Made by a program: the position numbers and the translations under genes. A stretch of 64,000 nucleotides of DNA from Planctomycetota bacterium (GTDB lineage Bacteria > Planctomycetota > Phycisphaerae > Phycisphaerales > UBA1924): contig JBCBSM010000001.1 of the NCBI GenBank assembly GCA_039819165.1, forward strand, positions 2,480,001 to 2,544,000, given 5' to 3'. Of the stretch, positions 373 to 34,761 are shown in pieces. Below the pieces are notes generated by a model. The model saw only the letters and a list, made by a program, of their open reading frames with translations, did not search any database and was not told the DNA's origin. Numbering within the stretch: position 1 is the first letter of the stretch; every line of letters starts with the position of its first letter.

Positions 373-764
373 GTCCGAAGGGTACATGCGATGGGCGTCC
401 GCCGCGGGCCGCGATGGGCGATGCCCGAGGAGATGTTCGCGCGGTGCGCGAGAAATTCGCCCTGTGCTGGAAAGTGGTGGCGGGCCGCAGGGTGGCGTGC
501 GTCGCGGGTAGGCATCCCCGCGTTGCGGGCGGCCGGGGCATGTCGAACGACGCGACCGGCGAGGGGCATGTCGTGGCGTCGGCGGGGATGCCCCTGCGGG
601 AACGGGGCTCGTGCACGCTGGTTGGTCCGCCCCGGGTGATCCCGGTCGTACTAGCGGGCCTTGCCGCGGCGGGCGATGTGACAAACGGCTGCGTGCTTGC
701 TGTGGCGTTGCATTGCGATGGTGGAGACGCCGGCGGGGTGTCGGCCCCGCCCGGGAGCAATTCG
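373..764 (+). promoter_or_regulatory. 392-bp leader upstream of the rhodopsin gene with repeats
   Basis: I see no convincing gene here. The frame open upstream of the rhodopsin has no homology-like features and would add 117 residues that the family lacks. The stretch holds a direct repeat GGGGCATGTCG at 535-545 and 563-573 (28-bp period). It also holds a perfect 10-bp inverted repeat, GGCATCCCCG at 511-520 and CGGGGATGCC at 583-592. A second, overlapping pairing joins GGGGCAT 563-569 to ATGCCCC 588-594, so alternative RNA folds or an operator array are possible. No confident -35/-10 pair was found. A ribosome binding site (GGGAG at 753-757) lies 7 nt before the ATG at 765. Confidence 0.3.
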
Positions 765-1586
765 ATGCACACACTTGTGGGACTTTCTGACACCTCGATG
801 GCCCTCAACGCGGGGCTCTCCATCGAGGGCATCACGATGTACCTCTTCTGGATCGGCACCGTCGCGATGGGTGCGGGCACGGCCTACTTCTGGCTCATGG
901 CCGGCAGCGTGCCCAGGGCGTATCGCTCGGTCATGGTCGTGGCGGGCATCATCACCGCGGTGGCCTGCTTCCACTACTTCCGGATGTCGGGCATCTACCT
1001 CGAGCAGGTCGCGGGCTTGTTTAACGCCGACGGCACGCGGATCGAGGGCGCCGAGATCGGCCAGTTCCCCACGGCCTACCGCTACATCGACTGGCTCATC
1101 ACGGTGCCGCTGCTCGTGCTCGAGATTCCGCTGCTCCTGCGGCTGAAGGGCCGCGGCGGCTCGTTGTTCCAGACGCTGGTGGGCGCGAGCATCGTGATGC
1201 TGGTGCTGGCCTGGGTGGCCGAGGAATCTCCGGTCGGCGGTGGCACGTGGTGGATCACCTACCTGCTGTCCTGCGCCGCGTGGCTGTACATCGTGTTCGT
1301 GCTGTATACGAAGGTGTCGACGGAGATGCAGAACTCGCCGTCGTCGATCCAGAAGTCGCTCAAGACGCTGCGGCTGTTCATTCTGGTCGGCTGGACGATC
1401 TATCCGGTGGGCTTCCTGATGGCGCTGGCCGGCCCGGACGGCGAGTCGATCCGCGAGATGTGCTACAACGTCGCGGACGTCATCAACAAGGTGTTCTTCG
1501 GCCTGGTGTGCTACCAGGGCGTCAAGGTACTGACGGACACCGAGCACGACACCGTCGGTGACGATGTGCTGACGCGGGCGGCCTAG
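765..1586 (+). CDS. Proteorhodopsin-type light-driven proton pump
   Basis: This is a 273-residue seven-helix microbial rhodopsin of the inner membrane that uses retinal and light to export protons. Helix C (RYIDWLITVPLLVLE) gives Asp109 as proton acceptor, Thr113 and Glu120 as donor, the DTE set of proteorhodopsin. Lys242 in helix G binds retinal, with Asp238 as the second counterion. His70 matches the proteorhodopsin His75. Leu117 sits at the spectral-tuning site (PR residue 105), which predicts green absorption. Tyr166 lies where xanthorhodopsin has the glycine that opens a carotenoid-binding gap, so an antenna of that type is unlikely. I chose ATG 765 because it has a GGGAG site 7 nt upstream and gives the family's usual length. 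blh follows at once. Confidence 0.95.
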   Translation: MHTLVGLSDTSMALNAGLSIEGITMYLFWIGTVAMGAGTAYFWLMAGSVPRAYRSVMVVAGIITAVACFHYFRMSGIYLEQVAGLFNADGTRIEGAEIGQFPTAYRYIDWLITVPLLVLEIPLLLRLKGRGGSLFQTLVGASIVMLVLAWVAEESPVGGGTWWITYLLSCAAWLYIVFVLYTKVSTEMQNSPSSIQKSLKTLRLFILVGWTIYPVGFLMALAGPDGESIREMCYNVADVINKVFFGLVCYQGVKVLTDTEHDTVGDDVLTRAA

Positions 1587-1605
1587 GGCCGGGTTCGCAG
1601 CAGGC

Positions 1606-2637
1606 ATGCCGGTCGTTCTGGCCCAACTCGCTCTCCTTCCCGGCCACGCCAGCGGCGCAGGACGCCCGCTGGCGTGGCCGCGTGGTGCGGCGTACGCCGT
1701 CGCGGTGCTCGCCGCGGTGGTGCTCGGGGTCGCTGGCGTCGGCGTGTCGGGAGCGCTGGCCGGCTCGTGGGTATGGGTGATGGCGCTCGTTGTGGCCGGC
1801 ATGCCGCACGGGGCGTACGACCTCGCGGAGATGCAGCGGCGATGGGGGTTGCGTGGGGCGATGCGATCGTTCGTGCCCTACGCGGCCGCATTCGTGTCGT
1901 GCGGGCTGGCGTTCGTCGTTGCTCCCGTTGTCGTTCTGCTGGCGTTCCTTGTGCTGACGATGGTGCACTTCGGGCTCTCGGACACGAGGCATCTGCGCAT
2001 CCGGGCCAGCGGTCTAGATGGAGGGTTGCTCGGGCGAGCGCTGGCGTTTGCGCACGGCGGAGTGGTGATCGCGGCCGTATTCGCGTTCCAGCCAGGGGTG
2101 AGCTGGCGGCCGTTCGCGGAGATCGCCGGCCTGGTCGGCGGCGCCGCGGGCCCGATGGGCGTGCCCATCGCGGCGCTGCAGGCGGCGGCGGTGCTGGTGA
2201 TGGCCGTCGGCGGGCTCGTGGTCGCCGCGTCGGCGGTGATCGCCTGGCGGCACGACACGCGCATGGCGGCGGCGGAGATCATCGGCGTGCCGTTGCTCGC
2301 GGTGGCATCGGCGTCGGCGCTGCCGCCCCTACTGGCGGTGGGGATGTACTTCGTGTGTGTGCATGCGACGCGGCACTGCGTTCGCGTCGGCGATCGCGGC
2401 GATGGGGCGCTGCGGGCGTTTGCTCGGACGCACGCGCTGTCGGTGCCGTTGCTGGTGCCGTCGCTGGCGATCGTCGGGTTGCTGGCGCTGCCATTCGCCG
2501 AGCTCGGCTGGGTGCCCGCGTTCGCGCTCGCCTTCCTGCTCTTCTGCGTCGTGGCGACGCTGCCGCACCACGCGCTGTGGTTTGGCCGGGCGTGTGGTGG
2601 GTGGTGCAGCAAGCGGTCCGCCGGCGGATTGGCTTAG
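1606..2637 (+). CDS. blh: Brp/Blh-family beta-carotene 15,15'-dioxygenase
   Basis: This 343-residue multi-pass membrane enzyme cleaves beta-carotene to two retinals, the chromophore of the rhodopsin encoded just upstream (19-bp gap, same strand). The family histidine motifs are all present: GMPHGAYD (His68), HFGLSD (His121), HATRH (His253, His257) and TLPHH (His321, His322). These are the expected iron ligands. About eight hydrophobic segments cover the chain. No carotene synthesis genes (crtE/B/I/Y) occur in this window, so beta-carotene must come from elsewhere in the genome. The pairing with rhodopsin makes the assignment firm. Confidence 0.93.
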   Translation: MPVVLAQLALLPGHASGAGRPLAWPRGAAYAVAVLAAVVLGVAGVGVSGALAGSWVWVMALVVAGMPHGAYDLAEMQRRWGLRGAMRSFVPYAAAFVSCGLAFVVAPVVVLLAFLVLTMVHFGLSDTRHLRIRASGLDGGLLGRALAFAHGGVVIAAVFAFQPGVSWRPFAEIAGLVGGAAGPMGVPIAALQAAAVLVMAVGGLVVAASAVIAWRHDTRMAAAEIIGVPLLAVASASALPPLLAVGMYFVCVHATRHCVRVGDRGDGALRAFARTHALSVPLLVPSLAIVGLLALPFAELGWVPAFALAFLLFCVVATLPHHALWFGRACGGWCSKRSAGGLA

Positions 2638-2692: not shown

Positions 2693-3193
2693 CTAGCCCA
2701 GCGGCTCGTCGCCCGTGATTTCGGCCCCGATGGCAACGGCGAAGATCTGCAGGCGGTGGCCCTTGGGTTCCAGGCCCATCTCGCGGCAGATCCGCTCGCG
2801 GATGGCCACGAGCTCGGGCACGTCGATGGCGACCGCCTCGCGGGTATCCAGGCGGACGAGGGTGTCGCTGGGGCTCTCGCCGTAGGCCAGCTGGTAGCGG
2901 GCCTGGTCGCCCTCGGTTAGCACCCGCTGGATGATGCCGGCATCCTGGAGCAGGTGGATGGTGCGGTAGACGGTGGCCTTGCTGACGCGATGCCCGAGCG
3001 TGCGGAGTTGGTCGATGACCTCTTCGGCCTCGAAGATGCGATCGAGCAGGATGATCGCATCGAGCACGCGAGCCCGCTCGGTGGTGTACTTCTGGCCCTC
3101 GGCCTTGAGCTGGCGGCGGAAGACCGCGCAGAGCGGCTCGGTGATCCGCAGGTTGTCGCCGGCGGTCTGTGGTGCGTTGGGCTGCAGGGCCAT
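2693..3193 (-). CDS. Fur-family regulator lacking the metal-binding residues
   Basis: This 166-residue protein has a Fur-type winged helix (about residues 20-95). The recognition helix is SKATVYRTIHLL and the dimerisation-domain fold ends in GHRLQIFAV. The metal sites of Fur/Zur are mostly gone. The HHHDH cluster is replaced by YGESPSD (about 104-110) and the CxxC zinc knuckle by RLDT. The E. coli His33, Glu81 and Glu108 positions are also changed; only His146 remains. It may therefore sense something else or act constitutively. It is divergent from the ModA-like lipoprotein gene across 52 bp, so both may share a control region. Known family role: DNA-binding repressor. Ligand here: unknown. 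Confidence 0.8.
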   Translation of the reverse strand: MALQPNAPQTAGDNLRITEPLCAVFRRQLKAEGQKYTTERARVLDAIILLDRIFEAEEVIDQLRTLGHRVSKATVYRTIHLLQDAGIIQRVLTEGDQARYQLAYGESPSDTLVRLDTREAVAIDVPELVAIRERICREMGLEPKGHRLQIFAVAIGAEITGDEPLG

Positions 3194-28343: not shown

Positions 28344-30239
28344 CTAGCGACCCTCGAGGGTCACGGTCAGCGTGACCTCCTCGCCGTCGCGCATCACGCC
28401 GACGTTGACGGTGTCGCCCGGGCTGTGGCGGGCGACCAGCTCGCCCAGCGTGCCCGTGTCGAGGATCTTCTGGCCGTCCCAGCGGACGAGGCGGTCGCCC
28501 GAGCGGAGGCCGGCCTTGGCCGCCGGCCCGTTCTCGGTCACTTCGGCCAGCAGCACGCCCGACTCGTTGTCGTCGGCGTCGAGCACGACGCCCACGCGGA
28601 CGCGGCGCTCGCCGGCGGCCTCCCGCTCGCGCTGCTGCTGCCGCTCGCGCTGCTCGCTGGCGGTGATGAAGCGGAACTTGCCGGGCCGCACGGCCGCGTC
28701 GGCCACGATGTTCTCGTACATCCGCACCGTCTTGACGGCGCCCACGCGGTTGATCTTGTCGACGGTGTCGGCGGGCGTGTGGTAGTCGCTGTGGAAGTCG
28801 GCGATGATGCTGAACAGCACCGGCACCTCGGCGCGGTAGAAGGGCAGGTGGTCGCTGCCGCCGCTGAAGCGATCGGGGATGACCGCCTCGAGCCCCGAGG
28901 CGTCCACGTGCGGCTGGATGAACTCGCCCAGCCCATCGGCGGAGAAGCCGCCGGCGACGAGCACCCGCTCGTTCTCGATGCGGCCGATCATGTCCCAGTT
29001 GACCATCAGCATGTGATCGTCGATGGGCGCGATCGGATCGACGACGTAGTGCCGTGCGCCGTTCAGGCCGCTCTCCTCGGCGTCGAAGCCGACCAGCAGG
29101 ATGCTGCGGCGGGGCGTGGCATCGTCGGCGAAGCGCTGGCTGAGCTTGTCGGCGATCAGGATCACGCCCGCGGTGCCCGAGGCGTTGTCGTCGGCGCCGG
29201 GGTGCAGGGTGCCGGCATCGCCCGTCCGCGAGCCGAAGTAGCCCATGCCCAGGTGGTCCAGGTGGGCGCCGACCACGATCCACTCGTCGGCCAGGTCGCC
29301 CACGCCGCGGATGACGCCGCCGATGTTCTCGGCGATGAGCTGGGTGCGATCGGCCTCGCCGCCCAGGGCAATCTCGAAGCCCAGGTCCTTCAGGCCGTGG
29401 CCCTCGTCGGCGTGCTCGCGGAGGTCCATCAGCGAGCCGTCGAAGCCGGCGGCCTTGAGCATCCGCTCGGCGGCCTTGGGGCTCATCATGCTCACGGGTG
29501 CGTCGGCGTCGGCGCCGCCGGCGAAGCGGGCCAGCTGCTCGGCTCGGGCGTCGTTGGCGCCCGGCGTGTTGATGATGATGATGCCCTCGGCCCCGCGCTC
29601 CGAGGCGGCCCGCAGCTTGTTGGCGAACGCGGCCCTGGGCGACCAGCCCCGCTCGCCGTCGTTCCACAGGCTGCGGCCGTTCTCGTCCATGGGCTCGAAG
29701 CGGAAGAGCACCGCGATCTTGCCCTCGAGGCTGTCGCCCTCGGCGTAGCTGCTGTAGCCGTCCGGCCCGTTGTCGATCGAGTAGCCGACGAAGACCGCCT
29801 CGCCGCGCGCCTCGCCGGTGCTGCCCATGCCGGTGAACATGAAGTCCTTCTCGGCGTCGAACTCGATGCGGCGGTTGCCGTTCATCGCCATGAGCGACTC
29901 GCTCTGCACCTCCCAGGTGCCGCGGAGCGGGAAGGGATCGCGGTAGGTCGAGAAGGCGTTGCCGTCCTCGTCGGGGAAGGCCGGCTCCAGGCCGTACTTC
30001 TCGAAGTGGAACTCGATGTAGCGCTTGGCCAGTTCGCTGCCCTCGGTGCCGGGCACGCGACCGCCCATGAAGGGGTTGGCCAGGGTCGAGATGTGCATGT
30101 CGTACGCGCGGACGTCCTCGGCCGAGTCCATCAGTGCGTCGGAGATCGGCGAGCCGTTCTGGGCGTGGGCGGCCGCGCCGCAGAGGGCGACGAGCGCCGC
30201 GGCGCAGGCGAAACGGCGGGGGAGGGAGTCGATGCGCAT
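28344..30239 (-). CDS. Secreted M28 zinc aminopeptidase with PA and PDZ domains
   Basis: This 631-residue exported enzyme has a signal peptide ending AAAHA-Q. A PA-like insert (about 140-290) sits inside an M28 peptidase. Its zinc ligands are visible in AHLDHLG (His), GADDNASG (Asp), DAEESGL (Glu pair), NWDMIG (Asp) and DYHTPADT (His). After a charged coiled stretch rich in Arg, Glu and Gln (about 525-545), a C-terminal PDZ domain (about 550-631) has AEVTENGPAAKAGLRSGDRL. M28 plus PDZ is known from bacterial aminopeptidases that degrade peptides outside the cytoplasm. It is divergent from the zinc-linked ABC unit by 101 bp, which may be relevant as it needs zinc. Confidence 0.9.
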   Translation of the reverse strand: MRIDSLPRRFACAAALVALCGAAAHAQNGSPISDALMDSAEDVRAYDMHISTLANPFMGGRVPGTEGSELAKRYIEFHFEKYGLEPAFPDEDGNAFSTYRDPFPLRGTWEVQSESLMAMNGNRRIEFDAEKDFMFTGMGSTGEARGEAVFVGYSIDNGPDGYSSYAEGDSLEGKIAVLFRFEPMDENGRSLWNDGERGWSPRAAFANKLRAASERGAEGIIIINTPGANDARAEQLARFAGGADADAPVSMMSPKAAERMLKAAGFDGSLMDLREHADEGHGLKDLGFEIALGGEADRTQLIAENIGGVIRGVGDLADEWIVVGAHLDHLGMGYFGSRTGDAGTLHPGADDNASGTAGVILIADKLSQRFADDATPRRSILLVGFDAEESGLNGARHYVVDPIAPIDDHMLMVNWDMIGRIENERVLVAGGFSADGLGEFIQPHVDASGLEAVIPDRFSGGSDHLPFYRAEVPVLFSIIADFHSDYHTPADTVDKINRVGAVKTVRMYENIVADAAVRPGKFRFITASEQRERQQQREREAAGERRVRVGVVLDADDNESGVLLAEVTENGPAAKAGLRSGDRLVRWDGQKILDTGTLGELVARHSPGDTVNVGVMRDGEEVTLTVTLEGR

Positions 30240-30340: not shown

Positions 30341-31717
30341 GTGCGAAACTCCCCTGCCACGGCGGTTCTCGGTCGTGCCCCGCGGGCCCCCTGGGTGCTC
30401 GCGCTGGCGGTGCTTGCCCTGCTGGGGGCCTCCCCGGCGCTCTCTCGCCCGGCCGGGCACCCCCAGGACGGCCCGCACGCCGACCTGCGGATCGCGGTCG
30501 AGCCCGACGGCGTTCGCTTCGCAGCCGGGCTGAATCTCGCTTTCCTCGATGAGGCGCTGGCCGTCCCGCGGGAGACGCCCGACGCGGTCGCCGACGTCGA
30601 GGTCGCCCAGCTGCGGGAGGCGCTGGAGACCTACTTCCGCGAGCGGGTCGTGGTCGAGATCGACGGCGTCGAGGTCACGCCCGTCTTCGAGAGCTTCACC
30701 TTCCTGAACGATCCCGACCCCTCGCTGGCGGGCATCTACCCCCGCTTCGGCATGCGGGCGCTCATGCGGGGCGCCATCGTCGCGCGGTACCCGGCGCTCG
30801 AGGCGCCCGAGGTCGTCCGCGTGACCTGGCCGACGTACCCGCGGGACATCGTCGCCGGCGAGATGGAGGGCGCGACCGGGCCCGATGGGCTGCCGCCATT
30901 CATGGTCCTCGAGGCCCAACTGCAGGCGCTGGGCGGCCTCGAGATCGTGCGGTTCTCGAGGGCGAAGCCGACCATCGAGTGGTTCGCCTCGGACGCGGCC
31001 GCGGACCGCTTCGCCCGCGTGCCGCCGGTGGAGGTCGAGTCGCCGAGGCTCGAGGTGTCTCTCGTGCTGGTTGGCCTGGTCGGCTGCGCCCTGATCGCGT
31101 CGATCGTGGCCATCCGCTCGCTGGGCTGGGGCCGCGGTGTGCTCGCGGGCGGCGCGATGCTGCTGCTGTCGTCCATGGCCGCCGTGGGCATGCGGGATAT
31201 CGCGCCCGTGCCGCTGCCGATGCTCGGCTCGGTGTCGACGACGCTCGACGAGGATCGAGCGGTCGAGGTGTTCGCGCCGCTGCACGCCAATCTGTACCGT
31301 GCCTTCGACTACACGGATGAGGGCGAGGTCTACGACGCGCTGGAGCGTTCGGTGCGGGGTGATCTGCTGGGCACGCTCTACGACCAGATCTACAACTCGC
31401 TGCTCGATGCCGAGAACGGCGGCGTGCTGGGCATCGTGACGGGCGTCGAGCCGCTGGAGACGAGCCTGATCACCTCGATGGTGCAGGCCGACGGGCCGCC
31501 GGAGTTCCGGGTGCTGCACCGCTGGCGGGTCGAGGGCACGGTGTACCACTGGGGCCACTCGCACACGCGGCTCAACGAGTACCGGGCGGCCTATACCGTC
31601 ACCGGCACCGAGGACGGCTGGCGGATCACCGACCACCAGATGCGAAGCCAGCGGCGGGTGGACGACAGCGGGCGCGTGATCGACGATCTTCCGCCGCCGC
31701 TGCCGACCGAGCTGTAG
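30341..31717 (+). CDS. Hypothetical membrane protein, first gene of a zinc-linked ABC unit
   Basis: This 458-residue protein starts at GTG 30341. Residues 15-35 form a signal or anchor. A soluble periplasmic domain (about 45-235) contains two repeated beta-rich stretches. Two transmembrane helices follow (about 239-259 and 265-284), then a C-terminal domain of about 170 residues with conserved-looking aromatic and His residues (HRWRVEGTVYHWGHSHTR). I do not recognise a family. It lies 22 bp before the ATPase gene and looks like a dedicated subunit of that system, perhaps linking the transporter to its periplasmic parts. The function is inferred only from its position. Confidence 0.6.
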   Translation: MRNSPATAVLGRAPRAPWVLALAVLALLGASPALSRPAGHPQDGPHADLRIAVEPDGVRFAAGLNLAFLDEALAVPRETPDAVADVEVAQLREALETYFRERVVVEIDGVEVTPVFESFTFLNDPDPSLAGIYPRFGMRALMRGAIVARYPALEAPEVVRVTWPTYPRDIVAGEMEGATGPDGLPPFMVLEAQLQALGGLEIVRFSRAKPTIEWFASDAAADRFARVPPVEVESPRLEVSLVLVGLVGCALIASIVAIRSLGWGRGVLAGGAMLLLSSMAAVGMRDIAPVPLPMLGSVSTTLDEDRAVEVFAPLHANLYRAFDYTDEGEVYDALERSVRGDLLGTLYDQIYNSLLDAENGGVLGIVTGVEPLETSLITSMVQADGPPEFRVLHRWRVEGTVYHWGHSHTRLNEYRAAYTVTGTEDGWRITDHQMRSQRRVDDSGRVIDDLPPPLPTEL

Positions 31718-31739
31718 GGAGTTGCCGACCGAGCTCGCC

Positions 31740-32447
31740 ATGGAAGGTCCCGCCGACGAGAGACCGTCCCCCATCGTCGCCCGCGGCCTGCGGTTCGCCT
31801 TCCCCGGGGCGGCCGAGCCGACGGTCGATCTGCCCGCGCTCGGCCTGGGCGAGCTGGCCATTCGTGCGGGCGAGCACACCGCCTTCGTCGGGCCCAGCGG
31901 GTGCGGCAAGACCACGCTGCTGCGGCTGTTCACCGGCATCCTGCGGCCGACCTCGGGCGAGATCGAGCTGGCGGGCCGCCGGCTGGATCGCCTGGGCGAC
32001 GCGAGCCGTCGGGCGCTGCGGATCACCGCCGTGGGCATGGTGTTCCAGCGGTTCGCGCTGCTGGGCTACCTGACGGCGCTGCAGAACATCCTGCTGCCCT
32101 TCCGTGTGAATCGCGCGCTCGCGCTCGATGACGCGGCCCGGGAGCACGCCCGCCGGCTCGCGGAGGCGACGGGCATCGCCCTCGCGCTCGCCCGCCGGCC
32201 GGCGAACCTCAGCCAGGGCGAGCAGCAGCGGGTCGCGATCTGCCGGGCGCTCGTCACGCGGCCCGACCTGATCGTCTGCGACGAGCCCACGGGAAACCTC
32301 GACCCCGCGCGCGCCGCGTCGGTCATCGAGCTGATCCTTCGGCAGGCCGACGAGACGGGCGCGACGGTGCTCCTGGTCACGCACGACCACGCGCAGCTGG
32401 CGCACTTCGCCCGCGTGATCGACCTTCGCGGGGAGCCCACGCCGTGA
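31740..32447 (+). CDS. ABC transporter ATPase, LolD/MacB-like
   Basis: This 235-residue cytoplasmic ATPase has Walker A GPSGCGKTTLL, Q-loop VFQRFALLGYLTALQNILLP, signature LSQGEQQRV, Walker B LIVCDEPTGNLDP and H-loop VTHDH. The signature and NLD form match the LolD/MacB/FtsE group, not ZnuC. ATG 31740 is chosen; a TTG at 31722 has its purine run too close. The stop overlaps the permease GTG by 4 bp. The partner permease and the histidine-rich lipoprotein that follow suggest an unusual zinc-related machine. Confidence 0.92.
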   Translation: MEGPADERPSPIVARGLRFAFPGAAEPTVDLPALGLGELAIRAGEHTAFVGPSGCGKTTLLRLFTGILRPTSGEIELAGRRLDRLGDASRRALRITAVGMVFQRFALLGYLTALQNILLPFRVNRALALDDAAREHARRLAEATGIALALARRPANLSQGEQQRVAICRALVTRPDLIVCDEPTGNLDPARAASVIELILRQADETGATVLLVTHDHAQLAHFARVIDLRGEPTP

Positions 32448-33610
32448 GGCTGCTGCCGCTGGTCCTAGCGCACGCCGCGCACCACCGGGGCCGCACGCTG
32501 CTGCTGGTGGGGTGCGTGGCGGTCGCGATGGTGGTGCCGCTGCTGAGCCGGGTGCTTGTCGCCCGCTTCGAGGCCAACCTGCACGCCCGGGCCGACACCG
32601 TGCCGCTGGTCGTGGGGGCGAAGGGCAGCCGCTTCGATCTGGTGTTCGCCGCGCTCTATTTCCGCGAGGCCGATCTCGCCGCCACGCCGCACCGCGTGTA
32701 CGCATCGCTGGTGGCCGACGAGCAGGCAACGGCGATCCCGGTGCACGCGGAGTTTGCCGCCGAGGGCGTGCCCGTCGTGGCGACATCGATCGAGTACCTG
32801 CAGGCGCGGGGGCTACGGATCGCCGAGGGCCGCGCCTTCGCGCGGATCGGCGAGGTCGTCCTTGGTGCGGATGCAGCCGCACGACTGGGCGTCGCGCCCG
32901 GCGGCAGCGTCTTCAGCGACCAGCGGGAGGCCTACGACATCACAAGCCCGCCATCGGTCAAGCTCGACGTCGCCGGCGTGCTCGCGCCCACGGGCGGCGT
33001 CGACGACGGCGTCATCCTGGCCGACCTCGAGACGGCCTGGGTGCTCGAGGGCATCGCGCACGGTCACGCGGAGGCCGAGTCGATCGATCGCGAGGACCTC
33101 GTGCTGGGCGCGACCGAGGACCACGTCGCCCTCTCCGGCGCCGTCAGCACCTACCAGGAGATCACCGACGAGACCGCGGCCAGCTTCCACGTGCACGGCC
33201 CGCGGGACAACCTGCCGCTGACGGCCGTCCTCGTCTACCCGCGGGACGACAAGGCCCGCACTATCCTCGCGTCGCGGCTGAACGCGACGCCTGATCTGCA
33301 GGCGGTCCGGCCGTCGCGGGTGATCGACGATCTGGTCGCCTTCGTGGTCCGGCTGCGACAGATCTTCGACGCGCTCGCGGTGCTGCTGGCGGCGTCGACC
33401 GCGGCGCTGATCGTGCTCATCGGCGTGCTGAGCTACCGCCTGCGGGCCGACGAGATCCGCACGCTGACCGACATCGGCTGCGGGCGGGCGACCGTCGGGC
33501 TGTTGTTCGGCCTAGAGCTCGCGTTCGTGCTGCTGGCGGCGGCCGTGCTGGCGGGGGTTCTGGCCCTCGCCGTGGTGTCCGTGGTGGCGGGCGTCACGCC
33601 ATACTTGTAG
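32444..33610 (+). CDS. ABC permease, FtsX/MacB/LolC-like
   Basis: This 388-residue permease has the FtsX layout. There is one helix at about 18-38, a large periplasmic domain (about 40-300) and three helices at the C-terminus (about 300-325, 345-368, 370-388). The motif EIRTLTDIGCGRATV between the second and third helices is the usual coupling loop (EIAxLRxxGAxxxxI). The GTG start lies in the ATPase stop. Such permeases do mechanotransmission or lipoprotein release rather than classical import. Pairing with a TroA/ZnuA-like lipoprotein is therefore notable. Confidence 0.85.
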   Translation: MRLLPLVLAHAAHHRGRTLLLVGCVAVAMVVPLLSRVLVARFEANLHARADTVPLVVGAKGSRFDLVFAALYFREADLAATPHRVYASLVADEQATAIPVHAEFAAEGVPVVATSIEYLQARGLRIAEGRAFARIGEVVLGADAAARLGVAPGGSVFSDQREAYDITSPPSVKLDVAGVLAPTGGVDDGVILADLETAWVLEGIAHGHAEAESIDREDLVLGATEDHVALSGAVSTYQEITDETAASFHVHGPRDNLPLTAVLVYPRDDKARTILASRLNATPDLQAVRPSRVIDDLVAFVVRLRQIFDALAVLLAASTAALIVLIGVLSYRLRADEIRTLTDIGCGRATVGLLFGLELAFVLLAAAVLAGVLALAVVSVVAGVTPYL

Positions 33611-33672
33611 TGTTCACCAGTGGTGGTGCGCCGAAGGTGGTGCGTAAGAGTCTCGAGATGGAGGTGCGGAGC

Positions 33673-34761
33673 ATGCAAGCAACGTGGATGATCCGGCTGC
33701 TGGCCTGCGCGGCGCTCGCCGCGGCAACCTGGACGCTCGCTGCGTGCGAGCAGAATCAGGCCGCGGCCGACGCGGAGGCGGCGGGCGAGGACGTCGTGCT
33801 GGCGACCTTCTACCCCACCGAGTACTTCGCCACGCGGATCGCCGGCGGGCTGGTCGAGGTCGGCTGCCCGCTGCCCGCGGACGCCGACCCGATCTTCTGG
33901 CGGCCCTCGGGTGACGCCATCGCCCGATACCAGCGCGCGGGCCTGGTGGTCACCAACGGGGCCGAATTCGAGAAGTGGGTGGCGGGTGCGCCGCTGCCGC
34001 GGTCCCGCGTCGTGGAGTCGATCTCGGTGGCCGCGCTGGAGCAAGCGGGCGGGCCGATCACCATGGAGACGATCACGCACAGCCACGGACCGGAGGGCGA
34101 GCACAGCCACGAGGGCATCGACGGGCACACCTGGGTCGATCCGACGCTCGCGATCGCGCAGGTGCGGGCCATCGAGGCCGCGATGGCGGCGCGGTGGCCC
34201 GAGCACGCCGCCGACTTCGCCGCCAACGGCGAGGCGCTGGTCGAGAACCTGCGCGCGCTCGATGCCGCCCTCACCGAGGCCACGTCGCTGCTGGAGGGCG
34301 CCACGCTGCTGGCCAGCCATCCCGCGTACAACTACCTCGCCCGCACCAAGGGATGGGACATCCACAATTTGGACCTGGACCCCGAGAGCGCCGACGTCGA
34401 CGCGGTGGTTGAGGCCGTGCACGAGGCGCTGCACGAGCACGAGCATGACCACGGGCACAAGCACGGCCACGAGCATGACCACGGGCACGAGCACGCGGAC
34501 GACGAGGCCGCGGGCCACGACCACTCGGGCGACTCCGCCGACGCGGACCATGACCACGATGCGCAAGACGGCCCGATCATCCTGCTGTGGGAGGGCCAGC
34601 CCACCGCCGAGATCGTGACGGCCCTCGCCGATCGGCTCGGCGTCCGCAGCGTGCTGTTCACCCCGGCCGAGAGCCGCGGTGCGCTGGCCGAGGGGCAGGA
34701 CTACCTCGACGCGATGCGGGGCAACGTCGAGCGGCTGCGGGAGGCGGCGTCGGCCCTCTAA
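33673..34761 (+). CDS. TroA/ZnuA-like zinc-binding lipoprotein with His-rich loop
   Basis: This 362-residue protein has a lipoprotein signal (TLAAC, Cys25) and two lobes of the metal-binding cluster 9 family. Metal ligands seen are His152 (GHTWVDP), His216 (ASHPAYNYLA) and Glu307 (LLWEGQP). The usual first histidine (DPHxxxP) is replaced, since the sequence reads DADPIFWRP. A histidine/aspartate-rich insert spans about 254-296 with more than a dozen His, as in ZnuA zinc-collecting loops. A smaller His patch is at 136-146. ATG 33673 has GGAGGT 8 nt upstream. It closes the ABC unit, and zinc is the likely ligand. No ZnuB/ZnuC pair is present here. Confidence 0.85.
   Translation: MQATWMIRLLACAALAAATWTLAACEQNQAAADAEAAGEDVVLATFYPTEYFATRIAGGLVEVGCPLPADADPIFWRPSGDAIARYQRAGLVVTNGAEFEKWVAGAPLPRSRVVESISVAALEQAGGPITMETITHSHGPEGEHSHEGIDGHTWVDPTLAIAQVRAIEAAMAARWPEHAADFAANGEALVENLRALDAALTEATSLLEGATLLASHPAYNYLARTKGWDIHNLDLDPESADVDAVVEAVHEALHEHEHDHGHKHGHEHDHGHEHADDEAAGHDHSGDSADADHDHDAQDGPIILLWEGQPTAEIVTALADRLGVRSVLFTPAESRGALAEGQDYLDAMRGNVERLREAASAL

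What the first reader, a model, noticed from the sequence alone, without database searches (positions are those of the whole stretch)
30341..34761. Zinc-linked ABC unit with an FtsX/MacB-type permease
A histidine-rich TroA/ZnuA-like lipoprotein is encoded with a LolD-like ATPase, an FtsX-like permease and a novel membrane protein, not with ZnuB/ZnuC. From memory, the Vibrio zrg zinc system has a comparable mix. Here the first metal-site histidine is changed (DPI for DPH), so metal handling may differ. The divergent neighbour is a zinc peptidase.
Basis: partly seen in the sequence, partly recalled or inferred. Interest (0 to 1): 0.62.

Follow-up and report, generated by a model that had tools for sequence, protein, structure and literature searches.

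The report
Zinc-type ABC system with FtsX permease
Four neighbouring genes, kept together in many kinds of bacteria, appear to build an ATP-driven machine that handles a metal (most likely zinc) outside the cell membrane with a permease type normally used for other jobs, a relative of the poorly understood Vibrio Zrg system.

Summary
Window 30341-34761 holds four tightly packed genes: MEM (two-TM protein), an FtsE/LolD-type ATPase, an FtsX/MacB-type permease (FTSX) and a ZnuA/AdcA-like lipoprotein (SBP). They form a conserved unit: in 298 genomes of the class MEM (29) and FTSX (28, plus one split gene) occur in the same genomes, and all 23 SBP genomes have MEM. In 70 informative SBP loci of named genomes FTSX lies upstream in 59; an ABC-3 (ZnuB-type) permease in 0 of 114 loci. 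Eleven histidines are fixed: FTSX 77 of 77, MEM 70 of 70, SBP 90 of 90 sequences. The first ZnuA-site histidine is missing in 88 of 89 SBPs, so it is a family trait. MEM's N-domain is predicted to have the ZrgA fold, its C-domain an NTF2-like fold: MEM-ATP-FTSX mirrors zrgA-C-B, with a ZnuA-like lipoprotein added. Metal handling is well supported; zinc is likely but unproven, no Zur box was found, and import versus periplasmic delivery (perhaps to the co-located M28 peptidase) is open. New variant of a Zrg-type system.

The parts
30341..31717 (+). MEM: signal peptide, ZrgA-fold domain, two-TM hairpin, NTF2-like domain
   Evidence: no family match
30464..30988 (+). MEM residues 42-216, predicted ZrgA / Ang-1 fold
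   Evidence: Z 11.2 (9gce), 11.1 (8f1b), 10.5 (7amx); sequence profile not significant
31238..31660 (+). MEM residues 300-440, predicted NTF2-like domain
   Evidence: Z 12.6 (5had)
31547..31564 (+). MEM HWGHSH motif, H403, H406, H408
   Evidence: His in 70 of 70
31722..32447 (+). ATPase of FtsE/LolD/MacB type
   Evidence: ABC_tran 108.9 bits
32444..33610 (+). FTSX: FtsX/MacB-type permease
33059..33067 (+). FTSX HGH motif (H206, H208) in the periplasmic domain
   Evidence: His in 77 of 77
33185..33196 (+). FTSX FHxH motif (H249, H251) in the periplasmic domain
   Evidence: His in 77 of 77
33673..34761 (+). SBP: ZnuA/AdcA-like lipoprotein
   Evidence: PF01297 131.8 bits; fold Z 26.9 YcdH, 26.5 AdcA
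33886..33894 (+). DPI in place of DPH (first ligand of the ZnuA site lost)
34075..34116 (+). THSHGPEGEHSHEG hairpin with four invariant His
   Evidence: 90 of 90 at H157, H159, H165, H167; modelled as two strands at moderate confidence
34126..34128 (+). H173, second site ligand
   Evidence: His in 67 of 90
34318..34320 (+). H237, third site ligand
   Evidence: His in 87 of 89
34420..34557 (+). long His-rich tail, nearly confined to close relatives
34591..34593 (+). E328, acidic site ligand
   Evidence: Glu in 86 of 87; aligns with AdcA
28344..30239 (-). divergent M28 peptidase with PA and PDZ domains, recurrent neighbour in Planctomycetota

Best explanation
A Zrg-like, split MacB/FtsX-type ABC system for a transition metal, most likely zinc. 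Shown by computation: the four genes are a conserved unit; each of the three exported or membrane components carries invariant histidines; the SBP has the ZnuA fold with a rewired site. Inferred: the SBP lipoprotein captures the metal with its His hairpin, H237, E328 and (in most) H173, a site likely to release faster than a four-ligand one; it docks on the periplasmic domain of the FTSX dimer, whose HGH and FHxH histidines take the metal; MEM, held in the membrane by its hairpin, adds two further metal modules that feed or receive it; ATP hydrolysis drives periplasmic shape change (mechanotransmission, as in MacB) that makes the handover one-way and supports metal acquisition beside the conventional ABC-3 system of the same genome. 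Whether the ion crosses the membrane through FTSX is not shown.
For: Unit: co-occurrence in 298 genomes; FTSX upstream of the SBP in 59 of 70 loci, ATPase adjacent in 52 of 54, MEM in 43 of 46; order kept in 51 of 52 complete loci; ATPase and permease fused in one frame in L060; 14 of 14 tested genomes whose MEM or SBP locus lacked FTSX have it elsewhere, one in two pieces. Metal: invariant His; SBP nearest to zinc proteins AdcA and YcdH. Zrg link: fold; permease; zrgA-ATPase-permease order in 6 of 10 fetched ZrgA loci.
Against: No Zur-like box in the window or 44 relatives. MEM and ZrgA are not joined by sequence profiles (E 0.07). Phosphatase-linked FtsX permeases (86 and 91 bits) are as close to FTSX as ZrgB is (80-96 bits). 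Six of 29 MEM genomes lack the SBP at E<=1e-40, so it is not always needed or is replaced. A rival reading of the P. aeruginosa relative is export of pyochelin-cobalt (PMC11481552).
Confidence: 0.55

Rival explanations
1. Periplasmic metallation machine: ATP drives release of metal from the weakened SBP to extracytoplasmic metalloproteins, such as the linked M28 peptidase, without moving it across the membrane.
For: FtsX/MacB-type proteins are known for mechanotransmission rather than ion conduction (recalled, and stated for MacB in passages of PMC11481552). M28-PA-PDZ peptidase gene beside MEM in 18 of 31 class genomes and 17 of 80 named-genome loci, and directly downstream of the SBP in two loci, L132 and L137. 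In seven loci MEM and the peptidase stay paired although the ABC genes are elsewhere.
Against: The peptidase was not found beside the unit in the other 61 of 80 loci, so it cannot be the general client; L132 and L137 may be one lineage; linkage may only reflect a shared promoter region.
Confidence: 0.18
2. The metal is nickel, cobalt or copper rather than zinc in some or all members.
For: Methylomagnum plasmid set lies near nikR, TonB-type receptors and copC; Paracoccus plasmid set has two DUF4198 genes, a family with a nickel-bound structure (PMC12537917, passages); no Zur boxes; MEM N-domain also matches a copper-bound domain.
Against: Nearest solved SBPs by sequence and fold are AdcA and YcdH; the ZrgA system is zinc-linked (PMC9820375).
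Confidence: 0.2
3. A MacB-type exporter of a metal-binding small molecule or of excess metal, the SBP and MEM acting as sensors or scavengers.
For: PMC11481552 argues this for PA4064/PA4065, a related permease pair.
Against: No MacA-type adaptor match in the window proteins scanned; the partner is a ZnuA-fold SBP; no biosynthesis genes recur among the 25 families listed for flanking genes.
Confidence: 0.1
4. Lipoprotein release (Lol-type) or cell-division (FtsEX-type) machine with an unrelated SBP gene next door.
For: The ATPase scores best with FtsE and LolD models.
Against: All far under cut-off (FtsE 161 of 265 bits, LolD 160 of 308, LolC/E 14 of 362); co-occurrence with the SBP and fixed His.
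Confidence: 0.03

Closest known systems
ZrgABCDE (Vibrio) and PA4063-PA4066 (P. aeruginosa)
   Same: Split ATPase and FtsX/MacB-type permease; order metal-binding protein - ATPase - permease; MEM N-domain predicted to have the ZrgA fold; FTSX homologous to ZrgB (PMC9820375, PMC9817125 passages).
   Different: No PF10986 match for MEM; MEM adds a TM hairpin and an NTF2-like domain; a ZnuA-fold lipoprotein takes the place where zrgE stands; ZrgB does not keep the HGH and FHxH motifs; no Zur box found.
ZnuABC / AdcABC / TroABC (cluster A-I metal importers)
   Same: SBP fold and three of four AdcA site ligands.
   Different: First His lost in 88 of 89; permease is FtsX-type, not ABC-3.
MacB, LolCDE, FtsEX, YtrF (MacB/FtsX superfamily)
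   Same: ATPase and permease superfamily.
   Different: Scores far below family cut-offs; metal SBP partner; four invariant His in the permease.
Ang-1 'anglerase' domain of HupE/UreJ-2 and DUF4198 proteins
   Same: MEM N-domain matches Ang-1 in fold (Z 11.2); some MEMs have His right after a likely signal-peptide cleavage site.
   Different: Attached to a hairpin and NTF2-like domain, not to a HupE permease; the window's own sequence does not fit the simple AxA-His pattern.

Membership tests
Zrg system | ZrgA family protein (PF10986) | tested here: not met
   MEM: no Pfam match in the window protein; PF10986 not among the 11 families matched by 26 members; own genome has no PF10986 match; hhalign to ZrgA E 0.07
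Zrg system | ZrgA fold in the gene before the ATPase | tested here: met
   Predicted fold, Z 11.1 with 8f1b, rmsd 3.2 over 127; prediction only
Zrg system | Separate MacB-type ATPase and four-TM FtsX-type permease homologous to ZrgC/ZrgB | tested here: met
   but phosphatase-linked permeases score alike
Zrg system | ZrgE (DUF3299) present | tested here: not met
   The SBP follows the permease; none of six scanned window proteins matches DUF3299; rest of the genome not searched for it
Zrg system | Zur regulation | tested here: inconclusive
   No match to five recalled consensus boxes above shuffles; Zur motif of this group is unknown to me
Zrg system | Growth defect under zinc limitation without znu | not testable with these tools
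   needs experiment
Cluster A-I SBP (ZnuA/AdcA) | Fold | tested here: met
   PF01297; Z 26.9 and 26.5
Cluster A-I SBP (ZnuA/AdcA) | Four-ligand site | tested here: not met
   First His missing in window and in 88 of 89
ZnuABC system | ABC-3 permease (ZnuB) | tested here: not met
   0 of 114 loci at E<=0.01 with the own-genome ABC-3 protein as query; two control loci found
MacAB-TolC | MacA adaptor beside MacB | tested here: not met
   No adaptor match in the window proteins scanned nor among the 25 of 100 families shown for flanking genes
LolCDE | LolC/E and LolD equivalog scores | tested here: not met
   14.3 of 362 bits and 160 of 308 bits

The most novel reading that the evidence does not exclude
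An ATP-powered periplasmic metal-transfer machine: an FtsX-type engine that does not import zinc but pulls it off a deliberately weakened ZnuA-type lipoprotein and loads extracytoplasmic metalloproteins (in Planctomycetota the linked M28-PDZ peptidase) through a relay of invariant histidines in three proteins.
Probability: 0.18. Interest if true: 0.85.

Novelty: new variant of a known kind. Interest (0 to 1): 0.64.

Why it matters
Whether FtsX/MacB-type ABC proteins can move or deliver metal ions is contested: V. cholerae ZrgABC behaves as a zinc acquisition system, while the P. aeruginosa relative has been argued to be an exporter. This family pairs such a permease with a true ZnuA-fold lipoprotein and keeps eleven histidines without exception in the sequences examined, four of them in the permease, which gives point mutants that can decide the question. 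It also exposes a ZnuA subfamily (at least 233 loci) that database names would call ordinary zinc-uptake proteins but whose partner is not ZnuB.

Tried and rejected
Zur box: not found. Five recalled consensus strings gave 0, 0, 0, 1 and 0 of 45 upstream regions at p<=0.05 (about 2 expected); the shuffle used two-base blocks, a rough control. The promoter alignment of the window and five same-genus loci shows a conserved AATATA and a conserved start region but no AT-rich palindrome that I could see.

Sequence homology of MEM to ZrgA: not significant, so only the fold match is kept. Sequence search of solved structures with MEM: nothing meaningful. Viral fold library: no match at E<=0.001. Phage collection: no FTSX match.

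Recurring extra partners: of 89 flanking genes listed I gave 71 to Pfam, leaving out 18 that looked doubtful, overlapped the peptidase or had been scanned; only 25 of 100 families are shown, the commonest being EamA in 3.

My gene finder is simple and missed genes; statements on the four genes rest on HMM hits to stop-to-stop frames. L061 and L064 (first MEM search) are an N-domain-only hit and a broken hit and are not counted as members. L046's SBP is very divergent (21%); it was left out of alignment A4 but kept. Site geometry could not be measured: model coordinates are not readable. Bit scores of ZrgB and of FtsX, YtrF, MacB come from different profiles and are not strictly comparable. Record titles 'Cyanobacteria' (L091) and 'Clostridia' (L115) are MAG labels I do not trust.
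Full report
What is there. The four genes lie on one strand; the first gap is 4 bases, the ATPase and permease overlap by 4, and 62 bases separate the permease from the ATG at 33673. The ATPase is of the FtsE/LolD/MacB type. The permease is a divergent FtsX/MacB-type protein just under the Pfam cut-offs; its family profile finds FtsX (8idb, E 6.7e-7) and YtrF among solved structures. The last gene is a ZnuA-family lipoprotein. The first, MEM, has no match in Pfam or NCBIfam at E<=1. The same genome has a conventional set elsewhere (ZnuA-family SBP, ABC-3 permease, ATPase, with an iron-dependent-repressor-type regulator), one ZIP protein and three Fur-family matches.

Is it a unit? MEM was first found in 31 of 298 genomes of the class. 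Around these places, counting the window, MEM, ATPase, FTSX and SBP are together in 14 (one with an extra gene before the SBP, one with a very divergent SBP); seven have MEM, ATPase and FTSX without an SBP nearby; seven, all of one family, have MEM beside the peptidase without the ABC genes nearby; the rest are cut by contig ends or unclear. Profile searches of the same 298 genomes gave MEM in 34 at E<=1e-10, of which five match the N-domain only and 29 reach beyond it; FTSX at E<=1e-60 in 28; the SBP at E<=1e-40 in 23. All 28 FTSX genomes have MEM; the 29th MEM genome (G249) has FTSX in two pieces on two contigs; all 23 SBP genomes have MEM. Fisher p is 1.7e-38 for MEM/FTSX, not corrected for relatedness. 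Six MEM genomes lack the SBP at that threshold; one of them (G285, locus L046) has a very divergent SBP beside FTSX.

A scan of named genomes with the SBP profile gave 233 relatives, of which the best 80 were kept. Of the 70 with at least 1300 bases upstream, FTSX is upstream in 59 (58 within 1 kb); the ATPase is adjacent in 52 of 54 and MEM upstream in 43 of 46 of those with enough sequence. In 52 loci with hits to all four (50 of these 80 plus two plasmids), the order is kept in 51. Record titles include Planctomycetota, Verrucomicrobiota with Kiritimatiellia, Gemmatimonadota, Zixiibacteriota, Riflebacteria and Pseudomonadota. Eleven of the 70 lack FTSX nearby; their neighbours look unrelated by eye. 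An ABC-3 permease was found in 0 of 114 loci even at E<=0.01, while two control loci were found at 1e-23 or better.

I then looked in whole genomes for the missing parts: seven genomes with MEM alone and seven of the eleven with an SBP alone all have FTSX elsewhere (14 of 14, one in two pieces; four further genomes in that call were already known to have FTSX). In six of the MEM-only genomes FTSX and an SBP are neighbours at another place (G255, G182, G231, G084, G209, G246). In three genomes with MEM-ATPase-FTSX and no SBP nearby (G148, G245, G131) the best SBP hit is weak (62-106 bits) and may be an ordinary ZnuA. The parts mostly travel together even when unlinked.

Where the histidines are. 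Among distinct sequences matching at E<=1e-30, FTSX H206, H208, H249 and H251 are His in 77 of 77; MEM H403, H406 and H408 in 70 of 70; SBP H157, H159, H165 and H167 in 90 of 90, H237 in 87 of 89, E328 in 86 of 87. One of the two search patterns contains H167 and H173, so these are favoured by selection; MEM and FTSX were not selected so. Of eight related permeases (six ZrgB, two phosphatase-linked) none keeps all four: most do not align there, and two have His at the place of H208 only. Hydropathy puts the FTSX residues between the first and second TM segments and the MEM residues after the TM hairpin; that both are outside the cytoplasm is inferred from the known topology of this superfamily and from MEM's signal peptide.

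The SBP site. Against AdcA the first His is missing while the second, third and acidic ligands align. The first place holds Ile 43, Ala 41, other 4, His 1, gap 1 in 90 distinct SBPs; the second is His in 67 and another residue in 23. The conventional SBP of the same genome has His at these three places and Glu at the fourth. The fold is kept (Z 26.9, rmsd 2.6 over 259 with YcdH; 26.5 with AdcA). The His hairpin is modelled as two strands, at moderate confidence (pLDDT about 64-68). A rewired, faster-releasing site is my inference.

MEM. The model (pLDDT 86.7, pTM 0.74, 26 sequences) has an N-domain matching the copper-bound Ang-1 domain (9gce, Z 11.2), ZrgA (8f1b, Z 11.1) and PA4063 (7amx, Z 10.5), and a C-domain matching NTF2-like domains (5had, Z 12.6) (one search is a second look at Foldseek's list). 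Sequence profiles do not join MEM to ZrgA (E 0.07). A crude pattern for a cleavage site followed by His fits 36 of 74 MEM rows, not the window's own; this recalls the N-terminal-His metal proteins of PMC12537917 (passages read; it names ZrgA as the closest structure to Ang-1). In a Paracoccus plasmid the MEM match is a short protein covering the C-domain, after a DUF4198 gene. MEM-ATPase-FTSX thus has the order zrgA-zrgC-zrgB shown by the locus tags in a table of PMC9817125 (passage read), with the SBP at the place of zrgE; six of ten ZrgA loci that I fetched show zrgA-ATPase-permease. ZrgA itself passes the cut-off in 1 of 199 genomes of the window's phylum and 11 of 94 of a gammaproteobacterial sample.

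Mechanism and controversy. In V. cholerae zrgA matters under zinc limitation when znuA is missing, and ZrgB is noted as MacB-like (PMC9820375: abstract, first two of six parts and passages read). PA4063 binds zinc with micromolar affinity (PMC8561739, passages). PMC11481552 (passages) argues that PA4064/PA4065 exports pyochelin-cobalt. The present family, with a ZnuA-fold partner and four fixed His in the permease, favours direct metal handling by this transporter type. Import against periplasmic delivery is undecided. The M28-PA-PDZ peptidase beside MEM in 18 of 31 class genomes and 17 of 80 named-genome loci, and directly downstream of the SBP in L132 and L137, keeps the second reading alive in Planctomycetota; some of the 17 are the same genomes as among the 18.

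Novelty. Library searches for FtsX+zinc+ZnuA+permease (8 papers, listing seen, none on this by title and start of abstract), zinc+substrate-binding protein+MacB+Planctomycet (0), cluster A-I+FtsX+zinc (0) and mechanotransmission+zinc+solute binding protein (3, listing) did not show this unit described. Most subscription papers are not held. I file it as a new variant of the Zrg kind and not as a member, because the PF10986 and ZrgE tests were not met.

Noticed in passing
window 414-2637 (+): A bacteriorhodopsin-family gene (PF01036, 144.8 bits) followed by a beta-carotene dioxygenase gene (PF15461, 110.6 bits): a rhodopsin with its retinal-making enzyme in this planctomycete.
   Followed up: partly
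window 2744-3100 (-): A Fur-family regulator (PF01475, 71.1 bits) lies in the same window, about 27 kb from the unit; whether it is a Zur is unknown.
   Followed up: no
L003:2952-4292 (-): The conventional ABC-3 permease of this genome carries a C-terminal iron-dependent-repressor metal-binding domain (PF02742, 39.4 bits), an odd fusion.
   Followed up: no
L132:8001-10874 and L137:183-3053: In two Planctomycetaceae contigs an M28-PA-PDZ peptidase gene directly follows the SBP gene, a second arrangement of the peptidase linkage.
   Followed up: partly
L065:4992-10092: Paracoccus liaowanqingii plasmid: the unit is flanked by two DUF4198 genes, and the MEM match is a short protein covering the C-domain only.
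   Followed up: partly
L067 and L068: FtsX-type permeases related to FTSX stand beside an ATPase, a short hypothetical gene and an alkaline phosphatase in Deinococcus and Rhizobium plasmids: another uncharacterised sibling system.
   Followed up: no
L162:1368-5301: A ZrgA gene without an FtsX-type permease nearby, next to genes that read like zur, znuB and znuA (ZrgA, ZnuA and ABC-3 by HMM or phmmer, zur by eye).
   Followed up: no
L059:3258-5840 (-): An 860-aa frame without Pfam match is inserted between FTSX and the SBP in one genome.
   Followed up: no
L034:11796-13070 (+) and relatives: In the same genus a glucose/sorbosone dehydrogenase-type gene (PF07995) follows the SBP in L034; the same cluster is near the SBP in L035-L038, but not in the window.
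   Followed up: no
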